Assembly (NCBI GenBank): GCA_947178105.1 | Contig: CAMWXD010000026.1 | Coordinates: 1 to 53,213 of the forward strand | DNA: 53,213 bases | Direction of reading: 5' to 3' | From: an uncultured Eubacterium sp. | GTDB lineage: Bacteria > Bacillota > Clostridia > Lachnospirales > Lachnospiraceae | In this document: piece by piece, positions 10,489 to 53,033 of the stretch | How the letters are laid out: every line of letters starts with the position of its first letter | How positions within the stretch are numbered: the first letter of the stretch is position 1 | Notes under the pieces: generated by a model | Told to the model about the DNA's origin: nothing | Seen by the model: the letters and a program-made list of their open reading frames with translations, nothing else | Database searches by the model: none | Program-made: the position numbers and the translations under genes

Positions 10489-13400
10489 TTATGATTCCTG
10501 ATACAGCACATAATCCTGCATTTCCCTGTGAAATCCCGCCTGTGCCAACGCATCCTGCGCTGCTATCGGATAGTCCTTTACCACAATTCGCTTTCGTCCC
10601 GCAAATACTTCCCCCGCCTGGTACTGCCTGGCAAACGCTTTCATGCATTCTCCGGCAAGCTCTGGCGCAAACAGCCGCAGCAGCTTCCCCTGCCGCTCCA
10701 TTACTGCCACAACCGCCCCGCCACAGCACGCTGCCGCTGTTCCCGGCACACGCATAAAACTGCGCCCCGGCAGATGCGGCAGGATGTTCCCCCAGCTTTG
10801 CGCCGGGTCTGTAGCATTGACCCAGACAAGCTTTTCTGCTGGGTTTTGCAGCATCCGCATCACTGCTGCGGCATCCTTTCCCCGGACAAACTGCGCCCCG
10901 GACATCCCTTCTGCAAAATAGCCTCTTCTCGCCTGCCCAGTATATTCCCAGACCCGCAGCACCGACAGCGCCTCCTGCCAGGAAATCCCCCATGCCGCAG
11001 CCGTCTCCCGGCATAAAATAATGCTGCGGTCAAAGCAGCGTTCCAGCTTTTGGATCATCTGTGCCTTTAACGCCTGCTCCCTGACCGGGCGCACTACGTC
11101 CCATCTTCCGGCACGCAGCGCCTTTACCCGCATACTCGCCAGCCGTTTGGGCGCCATTTTTTTTGACCGTTCTAACTCAATCCACTGGCGTACAGGCACA
11201 AAGCTGTCCGCATATACGTATCCCCTTGCCATTAAGGAAAGCAGCGGCTCATGCGCGGATTCCCCATTTAACAGACGGTTCAGCGGCTGCATAAAGCTGG
11301 CTCCCCGCTTTAGCAGCGCTTCGTATATACGCGCTTCTTTGTCCGCACCGGCTTTTTCCAGCTCCTCCAGCCTGCCGCTTACGTCTGCGTCCCAGTCCGC
11401 CTCTTCCTGAAATTCAAAACACAGTCCGCCTTTTGCATCCATATGCCAGAACAGCTCTCCCTCTGCTAAAAACGCATCCAGCATCGTATCCCGATAATGC
11501 GCCACCCGCGCCGGAAGCACAATCGACTCCCAGGACGCTGCTGGAAAGGACGCTCCTGCATACTGCTTTAACGTATGCTCCAGGCATTCCTGCGCTGGCG
11601 CACCCGATTCCATCCGCGCAAGCAGCATTGCCGCATACGCCTGCGGCGGACAGGTCTTTGCCTCCTCCCGCCGGCTTTTTAATGTCCGCACTCTTGCGCG
11701 CTGGTACAGCACCGCATGATAATATAGCTTATCATGCTGCACCGCTTCCTTCTGCTGGCAAAGCGCTTGCAATATCTCCTCTGCAAGCGCCACCGTCCAG
11801 CCATAACGCTGCGCGACCTGGCACGCATCCGCCGCTCCGCGGTAACGCAGCATCCGCCTTACGATATGAAGCTGTGACGGCTGCACGCCTTGTCCCTGGC
11901 TGCCGCTCAACGCTTGCGCATACTCTGCTTCCTGCTCTGTTGCAATCCACAGTCCCTGCTCCAGGTACAGCGCCCTGCCGTCCAGTGCCAGCTCGTCCAG
12001 CCATTCCACCGGGATATCCAGATCCCCCGCCGCCAGATCTCCCTGCGTCATCAGCAGCGTATGAAGCTGTTTTGCATCCTCCGGCAGCTTCCCGTAAGCC
12101 TCCTGTACCTGCCGCAGCTCTTCATTTGACGGCAGCACAAGCTGTGTTCCCTGCCTCTGCTCTTCCTCCAGTGCCTCCCGCACTGCTGCATGGATGCCTC
12201 CCGGTGTCGGCGCATAATCATACATCACCGCTGCTTCCTGGCTCCATTGCAGCGGCAGCGACATCGGCGATGGCACGTCTACATAGACTTCCCGTATCTG
12301 CACGACACCCGCCTGGATATCCGAAAGGAGCTGCCGCAGCCCTTCCCCGTCCCACAATTCCTGCATACACTCCCGCCTGGTCTCCTGGATAAGCGGGTGC
12401 TCCTTTTCCCTGACAACCTGCTCCAATAACTGCGCACTTTTCAGCCGCTGCGCCCACAACGGCTGCCGCCCGTTCCTTTTCACGCCCATCATCAGTGCGC
12501 GCGCGCTGTTATACCGAAATGCCATATTGAACACCGGCGTCTCAGGCAGCAGGATTTCCAGTTTTTTGATGCACGTATCTGGGTTCAGCCTGTACAATGC
12601 CCCTTCGGGCAGCGGCTGATCCCCATAAGCATACACCAAAAAACCATCCTCCTCATCTACGCTGCCAACCTCCAGCCCCATCTCTTCCCGTATCATATGC
12701 GCCGTCAATAGCGCAAGCGGCGCATTAATCCGCCTTCCAAATACCGAATGGAACATAAGCTGGCTGCTCCCGGACGAATCCCTAAAATGCTCCACAAGTA
12801 TCGTGCGGTCATCTGCCAGGCTGCCGACCGCCCTGATCTGGCGCGCCAAGTAGCCGTAAGCCAGCTTTACCGCAGATGCATCCAGTCCCAGGCGCTCCAA
12901 TGCCTCTTCCAGCATCCCGTCTGCATGGGCTTGCTGCAAAGTATGCAGCATCCGGCCAAATGCCTCTCCGGTGCGCTTGTCCCTGCCTTTCATCTCTCCT
13001 TTCCAAAACGGAAGCCTTGCCCCTTCCACCGGAGCCTGTACGACAGTCACCGTGTCCCTGCTGATCTGGGTCACTCTCCAGGCAAACGATCCAAGAATAA
13101 ACCGGTCGCCCTTCTGCGTCTCATAGACAAATTCCTCATCTACCTCCCCAAGCTTTACGCCGTCCTCTGTTTTCACCGCATACAGCCCTTTGTCCGGTAT
13201 CGTGCCTCCCGCAGATATGGCAAGCATTCTGCTGTAGCCGTCGCCTTCCACCTTTTCATGGATCCGGTCATACAGCACCCGCGGACGCGCCGGGATGTCC
13301 TGTGCGTGCTCGTAATCTCCTGCCAGCATTTCAAGCACTGCTTTGACCTCCTGCTTTGTAATGCCGCGAAACGGCCAGGCACGCGGCAGTATTTCCATCA

Positions 13401-51079: not shown

Positions 51080-51213
51080 TAAAAAGAAGAAAAATTTTTT
51101 AAAAAAATGTAAAATATTTCACGGTTCATTAAAACATCAAATGCTAACGCTTCAGTTTGTACAATTTCTCAATAGCTTTTCCAATGCTCTCCAACAATGC
51201 TGTTATGCCATAC

Positions 51214-51741
51214 TTAATTACTTTCCTCGATTTTAATAAATGGATATTTTCCATATTCATCATGCATGTTCCACTCCTCTATAGAAAGAACATCAACTTT
51301 GTTTATAAGTTTTATTCCTGTATTCAATTTTTCCTGCAAGTCAAAGGGTAACAGTTTCTTCATTTTATCACGTAATCTTTTTCTCATTGTTTCATCTCCG
51401 TTTGGTGTTTCAACCACATAAATATACCTTACCGGTTTATATTTTTCCAATAAACGCACGTAATGAAGTGAATCATAAAATTTACGGACAATCGAAGCAA
51501 ATTTCTTATCATCCATTGGATTAAATTGCGGCGTTTTAAGACCTGCATCTCTGGCTTTTCTGATATTTGCATTTTTATATTCTACAATCATAATAAATTT
51601 TTCATCTTCAAGCAGAAAATCTGCATCTGCCAGCGGAACTTTTGTAGTATGATAATCCTTGTGCATTTGATCTGATGCCCAAACCGCATTCGTATACTCC
51701 AGGCCGTAATCCCCATTTTCATCTATCAATATATTTTTCAT
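51214..51741 (-). CDS. PD-(D/E)XK-like nuclease candidate, partner of AAA ATPase
   Basis: 175-residue protein without a recognised family name. The pattern suggests the PD-(D/E)XK nuclease fold: helix glutamate in YGLEYTNAVW (E15), Asp in ADADFLLEDE (D41), strand IMIVEYKNA with E54-x-K56, then a helix and the QFNPMDDKKFASIVRKFYDS and VRYIYVVETPNG segments. ATG 51741 (GAGGATAGGC upstream) is preferred to the GTG at 51753. It follows the ATPase gene by 8 bases and is AT-rich like it. Together they resemble ATPase-plus-nuclease anti-phage pairs; nuclease activity is inference. Confidence 0.75.
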   Translation of the reverse strand: MKNILIDENGDYGLEYTNAVWASDQMHKDYHTTKVPLADADFLLEDEKFIMIVEYKNANIRKARDAGLKTPQFNPMDDKKFASIVRKFYDSLHYVRLLEKYKPVRYIYVVETPNGDETMRKRLRDKMKKLLPFDLQEKLNTGIKLINKVDVLSIEEWNMHDEYGKYPFIKIEESN

Positions 51742-51749
51742 GCCTATCC

Positions 51750-52856
51750 TCACATATTATAAACTTCATCGAGCAGCCGATTATCTGCCATCATTATATG
51801 ATTTGGCCCCAAATCTTCCATTTTATAGGCAGAAATACTATATACTTCATCTTTACTGTGATTTTCATCAGAATAATCACTAAGGACATCTGGAATCTCT
51901 GAAGTTCCTTTATACAAATTATGGAACATCACCTGCTCTTTTCTAAATTTTCTAATTTCCAGATATTTAGCAAAATTATAACTATGCGTAGCAATAAATA
52001 TCTGAACTCCGTTATTTTGCAGTTCTAATAATATGCTAACGACCAAAGGATATAATTCCGGATTTAAATTTGCCTCCGGCTCATCCCATAACAAGACCGT
52101 CCCCTTTTCAAGAAGCCCATTCCGTATTAATTTCCATAACAAGCCAAGTTTACGGAAGCCCTCTGCTTCCAGTGAAAAATCAATTTTTCTTCCATCCTCT
52201 TTTAGCACATAAAATATATCATCTTCCTGAACAACCGTTCCTCCAATCGCATCACTTATTTCTTTCAGAACCGCTTTACATGACTCAGGTATTACCCTTG
52301 TTTCCGGCAATGAAGCATTCACTATAATGTCAATCTGCGTACCATCAAATGGCATATTGTATTTTTGGTTCATTGCTAAAAATCCTTTGGAATGAGAAAG
52401 CATTTCTGTCGATGGAATATACACAGACTGTATATTCAATCCTAACCAATCGTCAAAATTAAAAATTCCATTATGTGATAAACTATCCGTAAATGTATGT
52501 CTACCATATGATACTTTATAATAGCAGTAATCCTCATTTCTATCTGCGTTCTTTAAATTATTCGAATCTTTTAAATTATTAGAAAAAAAATCTGTTAATT
52601 TTTTAGTTTTATTCGGATCTGTCTTTTCATTCGACCACTGTGTTGCAGCATAAATCATTTTTAAGATTGTCGTTTTTCCTACTCCGTTTTCACCGACCAG
52701 AACATTGATACCGCTACAAAACTCTAAATGAAATCCATTAGTAAACTTATCGCCATCCTTGATTTCCCCCTGTTTACAGTCTCCATTATTTTTTCTCCAC
52801 TGACGCCCAAAAACCATAACATTTAAAATATCTATTGAACTAATCGCCATTAACAT
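51750..52856 (-). CDS. AAA/ABC-type ATPase of a two-gene putative defence module
   Basis: 368-residue P-loop ATPase of the OLD/RecF-like AAA_15/AAA_21 group. Walker A GENGVGKT (55-62), signature-like LEAEGFRKLGLL (~229-240), Walker B TVLLWDEPEANLNP (~253-266) and switch histidine IFIATHSYNFAKYL (~287-299). No TOPRIM domain is fused, so an effector must be supplied by the next gene. The start may be ATG 52856 or the ATG two codons later (52850); AAAGGGGG lies just upstream of both. It is the first gene of the pair and markedly AT-rich, which suggests horizontal transfer. Confidence 0.9.
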   Translation of the reverse strand: MLMAISSIDILNVMVFGRQWRKNNGDCKQGEIKDGDKFTNGFHLEFCSGINVLVGENGVGKTTILKMIYAATQWSNEKTDPNKTKKLTDFFSNNLKDSNNLKNADRNEDYCYYKVSYGRHTFTDSLSHNGIFNFDDWLGLNIQSVYIPSTEMLSHSKGFLAMNQKYNMPFDGTQIDIIVNASLPETRVIPESCKAVLKEISDAIGGTVVQEDDIFYVLKEDGRKIDFSLEAEGFRKLGLLWKLIRNGLLEKGTVLLWDEPEANLNPELYPLVVSILLELQNNGVQIFIATHSYNFAKYLEIRKFRKEQVMFHNLYKGTSEIPDVLSDYSDENHSKDEVYSISAYKMEDLGPNHIMMADNRLLDEVYNM

Positions 52857-52891
52857 TCAGCCCCCTTTAAAATTTGTGCCTAATTCTATTT

Positions 52892-52920
52892 ATTCTATAT
52901 ATTTTGGAATAACCGATCAA
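52892..52920 (-). promoter_or_regulatory. Promoter of the ATPase/nuclease pair
   Basis: TTGATC (52915-52920), 17 bases, TAGAAT (52892-52897) on the minus strand, 36 bases before the ATPase start. Confidence 0.55.
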
Positions 52921-53033
52921 GGAAGTCAAGTGAATAGTAAAAAGCTCCAAATATTTTCATTAACCATTTCCATTACTTGTATTTGCAAAAAGAGATATTA
53001 TCTTTAATAGCAATAAAACCCTACATCAAAACA

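What the first reader, a model, noticed from the sequence alone, without database searches (positions are those of the whole stretch)
51214..52920. AAA ATPase plus PD-(D/E)XK-like protein: candidate anti-phage module
The ATPase has complete Walker A, signature, Walker B and switch-His motifs but no effector domain. An 8-base gap leads to a 175-aa protein with a D...ExK core (D41, E54, K56). Both are AT-rich, share one promoter and have no housekeeping neighbour, as in PARIS, Septu or Gabija type pairs. The partner does not look like the DUF4435/TOPRIM of PARIS or the HNH of Septu, so it may be a different combination.
Basis: partly seen in the sequence, partly recalled or inferred. Interest (0 to 1): 0.75.

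Follow-up and report, generated by a model that had tools for sequence, protein, structure and literature searches.

The report
ATPase–nuclease phage-defence gene pair (HEC-02)
This bacterium carries a two-gene cassette, an ATP-driven protein plus a small likely nuclease, that matches an already catalogued candidate antivirus system; it is a new member of a known kind, and its relatives appear to have swapped nuclease partners.

Summary
Two minus-strand genes, 8 bases apart, encode a 368-aa ABC-type ATPase (51750..52856) and a 175-aa protein (51214..51741) with D41, E54 and K56. They match PADLOC's candidate defence system HEC-02 (HEC-02A E 2e-100, HEC-02B E 6e-70). The small protein is very probably a PD-(D/E)XK nuclease: ExK is present in 22 of 22 paired nucleases, and profile comparison to UPF0102 and NERD beats decoys. 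A 9-sequence AlphaFold2 model (pLDDT 69.5) gives only weak, mostly nuclease, fold matches. Some relatives lie inside a BREX operon, beside BREX, Shango or AbiE genes, or on phage contigs; many lie between ordinary genes, and neighbours showed no enrichment over controls. In the genus the cassette is patchy and sometimes broken. The closest tested analogue I found is WonAB, an abortive-infection system (PMC12137116). Most likely function: ATPase-controlled abortive infection, target unknown, RNA slightly favoured. My addition: ATPase and nuclease trees conflict, which suggests partner swapping.

The parts
51750..52856 (-). HEC-02A: OLD/ABC-type ATPase, 368 aa, stop codon included in the span
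   Evidence: frame; PDLC04213 E 2e-100; AAA_21 1.9e-20; profile's nearest solved chains: retron/Septu PtuA-type ATPases, then AriA
52671..52694 (-). Walker A GENGVGKT, residues 55-62 (K61)
   Evidence: sequence; G55, N57, G60, K61, T62 invariant in the 15-row alignment
52149..52166 (-). ABC-signature-like AEGFRK, residues 231-236
   Evidence: sequence; G233 and K236 invariant, E232 and R235 nearly so
52074..52097 (-). Walker B region with D258 and E259
   Evidence: sequence; D258, E259, E261 and, just after, P266 invariant
51984..51986 (-). switch histidine H291
   Evidence: sequence; invariant in 15 rows
51214..51741 (-). HEC-02B: PD-(D/E)XK-type putative nuclease, 175 aa, stop codon included
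   Evidence: frame; PDLC04226 E 6e-70
51619..51621 (-). D41, motif II acidic residue (E in some relatives)
   Evidence: aligned with the D of UPF0102 in the profile comparison
51574..51582 (-). E54-x-K56, motif III
   Evidence: invariant in 16 of 16 rows and 9 of 9; ExK present in 22 of 22 paired nucleases
51481..51483 (-). K87 of the following helix (KxxDS), invariant in both alignments
   Evidence: helix 78-97 in the model
51122..51214 (.). left edge of the inserted cassette: blastn similarity to the two congeners with the most similar kinase-like gene (G1065, G1063) ends at 51122
52892..52929 (-). two overlapping promoter-like matches upstream of the ATPase (consensus only, no evidence of function)

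Best explanation
It is a two-gene anti-phage cassette of the candidate type HEC-02. The ATPase, an ABC ATPase of the OLD kind without an effector domain of its own, forms an ATP-dependent dimer (inferred from the family) that binds the small protein and senses infection (inferred). The small protein is a PD-(D/E)XK nuclease (motif and profile shown, fold weakly supported, activity not shown). On infection the ATPase switches the nuclease on and the cell stops growing before phages are assembled, that is, abortive infection (inferred). The substrate is unknown; by analogy with WonAB, whose nuclease stops translation and leaves chromosomal DNA intact, RNA is slightly more likely than DNA. The cassette moves as a unit, is gained and lost often, and over longer times ATPases and nucleases have probably been exchanged between lineages.
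For: HEC-02A/B profile matches. Nuclease directly downstream of the ATPase in 14 of 19 loci with an ATPase hit at E <= 1e-80 (eight of the fetched regions were found through the nuclease, so the number is biased upward), in 7 of the 11 loci found through the ATPase alone (read), and in 8 of 10 distinct viral contigs. ExK in 22 of 22 paired nucleases; NERD hit above Pfam's cut-off in one family member; profile comparison with two PD-(D/E)XK families at P 2.4e-4 to 0.014 (hhalign probability 3-43%) against P 0.26-0.87 for controls; model pLDDT 69.5 with mostly PD-(D/E)XK entries among the best, though weak, fold matches. Defence context of some relatives: inside a BREX operon with HEC-01, before BrxX/PglX in L111, beside BrxA/B, beside SngA/B, before AbiEi/AbiEii on a phage-like contig. 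Patchy presence and broken copies in the genus. Purifying selection on both genes. A passage of one paper says several HECs, HEC-06 among them, have shown antiviral activity (PMC12988326). Tested analogue WonAB: both genes needed, ATPase and nuclease residues needed, abortive infection, translation stopped, genomic DNA intact (PMC12137116 sections 7 and 9).
Confidence: 0.68

Rival explanations
1. Same module, but the nuclease cuts DNA (phage or host) rather than RNA: the ATPase loads or licenses a DNA-cutting effector. This overlaps with the best explanation and differs only in the substrate.
For: PD-(D/E)XK proteins are mostly DNA nucleases (general knowledge); the best, weak, fold matches are mostly restriction enzymes and CRISPR ancillary nucleases; NERD and UPF0102 are the profiles that matched; association of some relatives with BREX, a DNA-modification system.
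Against: The closest tested analogue stops translation without degrading the chromosome (PMC12137116). No methylase-like gene is seen next to the pair on the side that the contig covers (by eye).
Confidence: 0.35
2. A stress-responsive toxin-antitoxin-like pair that stabilises its own inheritance, with no specific role against phages.
For: Small operon, toxin-like nuclease, patchy distribution and broken copies, toxin-antitoxin-like genes near two relatives (a PDC-S09 match to an MNT-looking protein by G493; a PIN/UPF0175-looking pair by G1062, by eye).
Against: The ATPase is large for an antitoxin and carries complete catalytic motifs under purifying selection. Relatives inside or beside BREX operons. 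In WonAB simple sequestration was ruled out.
Confidence: 0.15
3. A DNA-repair or recombination pair kept for chromosome maintenance.
For: RecF/Rad50-like profile similarity of the ATPase.
Against: HEC-02B in only 7 of 299 genomes of the family sample, own included, and 6 of 13 genomes of the genus, own included, two of them only as fragments; different sites in congeners; phage-borne copies.
Confidence: 0.05

Closest known systems
HEC-02 (PADLOC-DB candidate, Hma-embedded candidate 02)
   Same: Both proteins match its models over nearly their whole length, in adjacent genes.
   Different: Nothing found at the level of the models. This copy stands alone next to a sugar-kinase-like gene on the side that can be seen, not inside a larger defence operon. 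I could not read the preprint that proposed it.
WonAB (OLD-ABC ATPase plus PD-(D/E)xK nuclease, experimentally shown)
   Same: Two-gene order, OLD-type ABC ATPase without TOPRIM, small PD-(D/E)XK partner; WonAB is prophage-borne and some HEC-02 relatives are on phage contigs.
   Different: WonA has 266 residues between K34 and E300 as numbered in the paper; here 198 between K61 and E259, and 262 in the phage-filed relatives L111/L112. WonB is 16.1 kDa; this partner has 175 aa. Sequence comparison not done.
OLD-ABC ATPase + novel REase operons (Krishnan and colleagues 2020, as cited in PMC12137116 and PMC12409358)
   Same: Same pairing as described second-hand.
   Different: Original paper not held, so no direct comparison.
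PARIS (AriA/AriB)
   Same: Two-gene design, related ATPase (an AriA profile E 6e-22; AriA chain E 2e-7).
   Different: Partner has no TOPRIM or AriB match; it is PD-(D/E)XK-like.
Septu / Retron Ec78 (PtuA/PtuB)
   Same: Nearest solved ATPases (E 2.9e-14 to 4.8e-9).
   Different: PtuB is an HNH nuclease (recalled); these ATPase chains have 456-552 residues, this one 368.
PD-T4-4
   Same: ATPase scores against PD-T4-4_A (E 5e-14); named as similar in organisation to WonAB.
   Different: Partner gave no PD-T4-4_B hit at E <= 1.

Membership tests
HEC-02 (PADLOC candidate) | ATPase matches an HEC-02A model | tested here: met
   PDLC04213 E 2e-100, residues 3-367 on profile 1-331 of 337
HEC-02 (PADLOC candidate) | Adjacent protein matches an HEC-02B model | tested here: met
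   PDLC04226 E 6.2e-70, residues 1-173 on profile 1-169 of 171
HEC-02 (PADLOC candidate) | Embedded in another defence system (Hma in the name; recalled) | tested here: inconclusive
   Seen for a relative inside a BREX operon (L105), none seen in Hma; this copy is not embedded on its visible side and the other side is cut by the contig end
PD-(D/E)XK nuclease superfamily | Acidic residue, then ExK, at the usual spacing | tested here: met
   D41 and E54-x-K56 (D to E 13 residues, as read in UPF0102 rows); ExK in 22 of 22. The position of D41 is E in G1006, G332, G880 and L074
PD-(D/E)XK nuclease superfamily | Profile relationship to a known member family | tested here: met
   NERD above Pfam's cut-off for one member of 8 scanned singly (23.7 against 22.1 bits; 2 of 16 at E <= 1); hhalign P 2.4e-4 to 0.014 against 0.26-0.87 for controls, probability 3-43%. 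The window protein alone has no Pfam match
PD-(D/E)XK nuclease superfamily | Core fold | tested here: inconclusive
PD-(D/E)XK nuclease superfamily | Metal-dependent nuclease activity | not testable with these tools
   needs purified protein
[quoted passage not shown]
   AAA_21 and AAA_15 above cut-off
WonAB | Two-gene operon, OLD-ABC ATPase then PD-(D/E)xK nuclease | tested here: met
   description from PMC12137116 section 7
WonAB | Sequence homology to WonA and WonB | not tested
   WonA/WonB sequences were not fetched; only motif spacing compared with the paper's residue numbers, 198 here against 266
WonAB | Abortive infection with translation stop | not testable with these tools
   needs infection assays
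PARIS | TOPRIM (DUF4435-type) effector AriB | tested here: not met
   Partner has no Pfam match up to E 1 and only HEC-02B matches in PADLOC
Septu | HNH partner PtuB | tested here: not met
   no HNH or PtuB match for the partner up to E 1
Gabija | TOPRIM on the ATPase and a GajB helicase | tested here: not met
   no TOPRIM match in the 368-aa ATPase; the gene after the ATPase is the 175-aa protein, not a helicase
PD-T4-4 | PD-T4-4_B partner | tested here: not met
   no match up to E 1

The most novel reading that the evidence does not exclude
HEC-02 is a modular immune platform: a conserved ABC-type sensor chassis onto which different PD-(D/E)XK effectors have been swapped repeatedly, with the effectors acting as infection-triggered RNases rather than DNA cutters. 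Closely related ATPases (vL074 and G493, 58% identical) carry nucleases only 20% identical, while distant ATPases (window and G281, 35%) carry nucleases 47% identical.
Probability: 0.25. Interest if true: 0.6.

Novelty: new member of a known kind. Interest (0 to 1): 0.35.

Why it matters
It adds a well-preserved copy of a candidate defence system in a bacterial genome bin, shows relatives on phage contigs and inside a BREX operon, and gives concrete residues to mutate (K61, E259, H291; D41, E54, K56). If the partner exchange holds, swapping effectors between natural pairs would be a direct way to ask which half senses the phage and which half decides the outcome.

Tried and rejected
A direct search for relatives of the small protein in viral contigs, plasmids and phage records found none; likewise the A2 profile and two distant members in viral contigs, two members in plasmids and one in phages and the close-ATPase profile in viral contigs. 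Viral copies appeared only with more distant ATPase queries. The genome-contig scan gave one relative, L014.

Neighbourhood enrichment was tested and not shown. Up to three ORFs on either side of 21 loci gave 108 neighbour proteins. Controls were 103 of the 124 ORFs listed from ten stretches farther off on the same contigs; I left out 21 at the stretch ends. At E <= 1e-20 the neighbours matched 44 PADLOC families, the controls 60; BREX families are in both lists, restriction-modification families are in the control list; only 25 families of each are displayed. The ORFs come from a simple longest-frame caller and include some that are probably spurious. The ten proteins scanned singly and the ten were chosen by me as likely defence or phage genes, so those hits are examples, not a rate; L055:12392-12961 and L048:2295-4064 had no hit, L106:270-1451 none.

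Rows dropped: the trees used 22 pairs with both genes readable. Left out were G204 (nuclease only), G225, G392, G972, the three other G880 loci and the broken copies of G1062, G1064 and G1069 (no readable pair), the nucleases of L012 and L027 (in alignment A1, but beside more distant ATPases), L113 (the same as L112 in what was printed), L114 (contig ends before the nuclease) and L116 (frame unclear). In one search, 12 of 14 NERD rows were used and at least one (L126) seems cut at the wrong motif. All six AU tests rejected the group tried, with p from 0.017 to 5e-48, but the groups were chosen after seeing the trees, so the p-values are too small; the nuclease alignment is short (196 columns) and the program warned of long branches in it.

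Full report
What is there. The window is one whole contig of a genome of 4.95 Mb in 159 contigs (95.6% complete, 8.3% contamination). At its right end two genes run on the minus strand: an ATPase of 368 aa (51750..52856) and, 8 bases after its stop, a protein of 175 aa (51214..51741). The ATPase matches Pfam AAA_21 and AAA_15 above cut-off; the small protein has no Pfam or NCBIfam match up to E 1 and only a PHROGs match at E 0.16. PADLOC names them HEC-02A (E 2e-100) and HEC-02B (E 6e-70). So the pair is a copy of an already catalogued candidate defence system.

The ATPase. [quoted passage not shown] The profile's nearest solved chains are retron and Septu PtuA-type ATPases (E 2.9e-14 and weaker); FtsE, AriA, Retron Eco8, Rad50 and OLD follow. 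No extra effector domain was matched. In the naming of the papers below this is an OLD-type ABC ATPase.

The pair as a unit. In 20 fetched regions plus the window, 19 loci hold an HEC-02A hit at E <= 1e-80; 14 have the nuclease directly downstream. Eight of the regions were fetched because of a nuclease hit, so the fairer count is that of the loci found through the ATPase: 7 of 11, own copy left out. Without an intact partner are G225 (nuclease broken, at a contig edge), G392 (shortened), G972 (ATPase with an in-frame stop, no nuclease), two loci of G880 (none recognised) and a third of G880 in pieces. In G993 the ATPase is split before Walker A. Ten distinct contigs filed as viral were confirmed by tblastn; eight carry both genes, L114 ends before the nuclease, L116 was unclear. 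dN and dS against congeners imply ratios of about 0.11 and 0.09 for the ATPase (G1066, G1065) and 0.18, 0.17 and 0.22 for the nuclease (G1066, G1065, G1062); the kinase-like neighbour gives about 0.04 and 0.02 (my ratios).

Distribution and movement. HEC-02B rang in 7 of 299 genomes of the family sample and in 6 of 391 of the class sample, four of these six weakly, own genome included in both. In the genus 6 of 13 genomes ring, own included: four full-length nucleases and two fragments. The ATPase is interrupted in G1062 and shortened in G1064. Similarity of the window to G1065 and G1063 stops at base 51122, before the cassette; G1063 has a histidine-kinase-like gene next there and G1065 a large peptidase-like gene (names by eye). 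G1065 carries its own copy elsewhere, beside genes that look like holA and rpsT (the same contig as L014). The kinase-like neighbour is 96.8% identical between the two genomes, the ATPase 78.9% and the nuclease 72.0%, so the copies are probably not simple orthologues. A roughly 110-base stretch just upstream of the window's ATPase occurs twice around the G1062 copy.

Context. In L105 (a 44.7-kb contig filed as viral) HEC-02A and B sit between a PglXI methylase and a BrxHI helicase, with BrxC, HEC-01A/B and PglZ in the same run. In L111 the next gene is BrxX/PglX (E 1.4e-195); L112, L113 and L109 look alike by eye. G217's copy lies by BrxA and BrxB, G204's by SngA and SngB of Shango, G972's by a PDC-M07A ATPase, one of G880's by a PDC-M42A protein. 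L074 is a phage-like contig where an AbiEi/AbiEii pair follows; L106 looks like an inovirus (by eye). Against this, many neighbours look like ordinary genes (whose output was cut), and 108 neighbour proteins matched fewer PADLOC families than 103 controls (44 against 60). The defence label therefore rests on HEC-02 membership, on embedding and phage carriage in some relatives, and on the analogue below, not on a measured enrichment.

Partner exchange. Trees of 22 ATPases and of their 22 nucleases disagree. The ATPase data reject the nuclease clade of window, G1065, G1066, G183, G217 and G281 (log-likelihood 222 lower, AU p 5e-48); the nuclease data reject the ATPase clade of G281, G217, G1006, G493, G819 and vL074 (112 lower, p 1e-5). 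Four further groups gave p 0.0006 to 0.017. Plain identities say the same: vL074 and G493 share 58% in the ATPase and 20% in the nuclease, window and G281 35% and 47%. The groups were named after seeing the trees and the nuclease alignment is short, so I treat exchange as likely (about 0.8), not proven.

What is known. In V. cholerae, WonAB (OLD-ABC ATPase plus PD-(D/E)xK nuclease) is necessary and sufficient for defence; ATPase and nuclease point mutants lose it; excess nuclease is toxic only when active WonA is present, stops translation and leaves genomic DNA intact (PMC12137116, sections 7 and 9 read, other passages seen). [quoted passage not shown]). A BREX survey reports OLD-ABC ATPases paired with HNH, PD-(D/E)XK or PIN nucleases in 594 taxa (PMC12839542, section 35 part 1 and passages). 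One paper says that several Hma-embedded candidates, HEC-06 among them, have shown antiviral activity (PMC12988326, two passages). The listings showed me no experiment on HEC-02, but I opened few of those papers, and the proposing preprint (10.1101/2024.01.29.577857) and the 2020 ABC survey are not held. So I cannot say whether HEC-02 itself has been tested.

Mechanism. Shown: the genes, motifs, family, pairing, patchiness. Inferred: dimer formation, sensing, control of the nuclease, abortive infection, and the substrate. I hold defence by an ATPase-controlled nuclease at 0.68; for the substrate RNA at about 0.5, DNA at 0.35, the rest open.

Verdict. A sound observation and a correct reading of the kind of system; not a new combination. 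New member of a known candidate kind, interest 0.35, raised slightly by the partner-exchange signal.

Noticed in passing
L105:1387-7532: A BREX-type operon on a contig filed as viral holds both HEC-01A/B (ATPase plus a TOPRIM-looking protein, by eye) and HEC-02A/B around PglXI.
   Followed up: partly
L074:6004-9412: Phage-like 117-kb contig with HEC-02A/B followed by an AbiEi/AbiEii pair.
   Followed up: partly
L106:5998-7548: A 10.2-kb inovirus-like contig (Zot-like ATPase by eye, no PADLOC hit) carries HEC-02A- and HEC-02B-like genes; a defence pair on so small a phage would be notable.
   Followed up: no
window 52886-53003; L101:8427-8537 and 12102-12216: A roughly 110-base stretch upstream of the cassette occurs as two direct copies around the HEC-02 copy of congener G1062, with a third weak match elsewhere there; possible small mobile repeat.
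   Followed up: partly
G880 (L060-L063): One genome holds four HEC-02A-like loci, only one with a recognised nuclease and one in pieces.
   Followed up: no
L100:5188-5982 and L102:6588-8972: Near congener copies lie a PDC-S15 match and a DUF262-looking gene (by eye), both of defence-associated kinds.
   Followed up: no
window ATPase, residues about 17-43: An insert of roughly 20-25 residues before Walker A is present in the window, G225, G130 and G183 ATPases but absent from L014 and the other rows.
   Followed up: no
PADLOC models PDLC04146 and PDLC04145: Labels look crossed: a model named HEC-02B matches the ATPases (15 of 15) and one named HEC-02A matches 3 of 16 nucleases.
   Followed up: no
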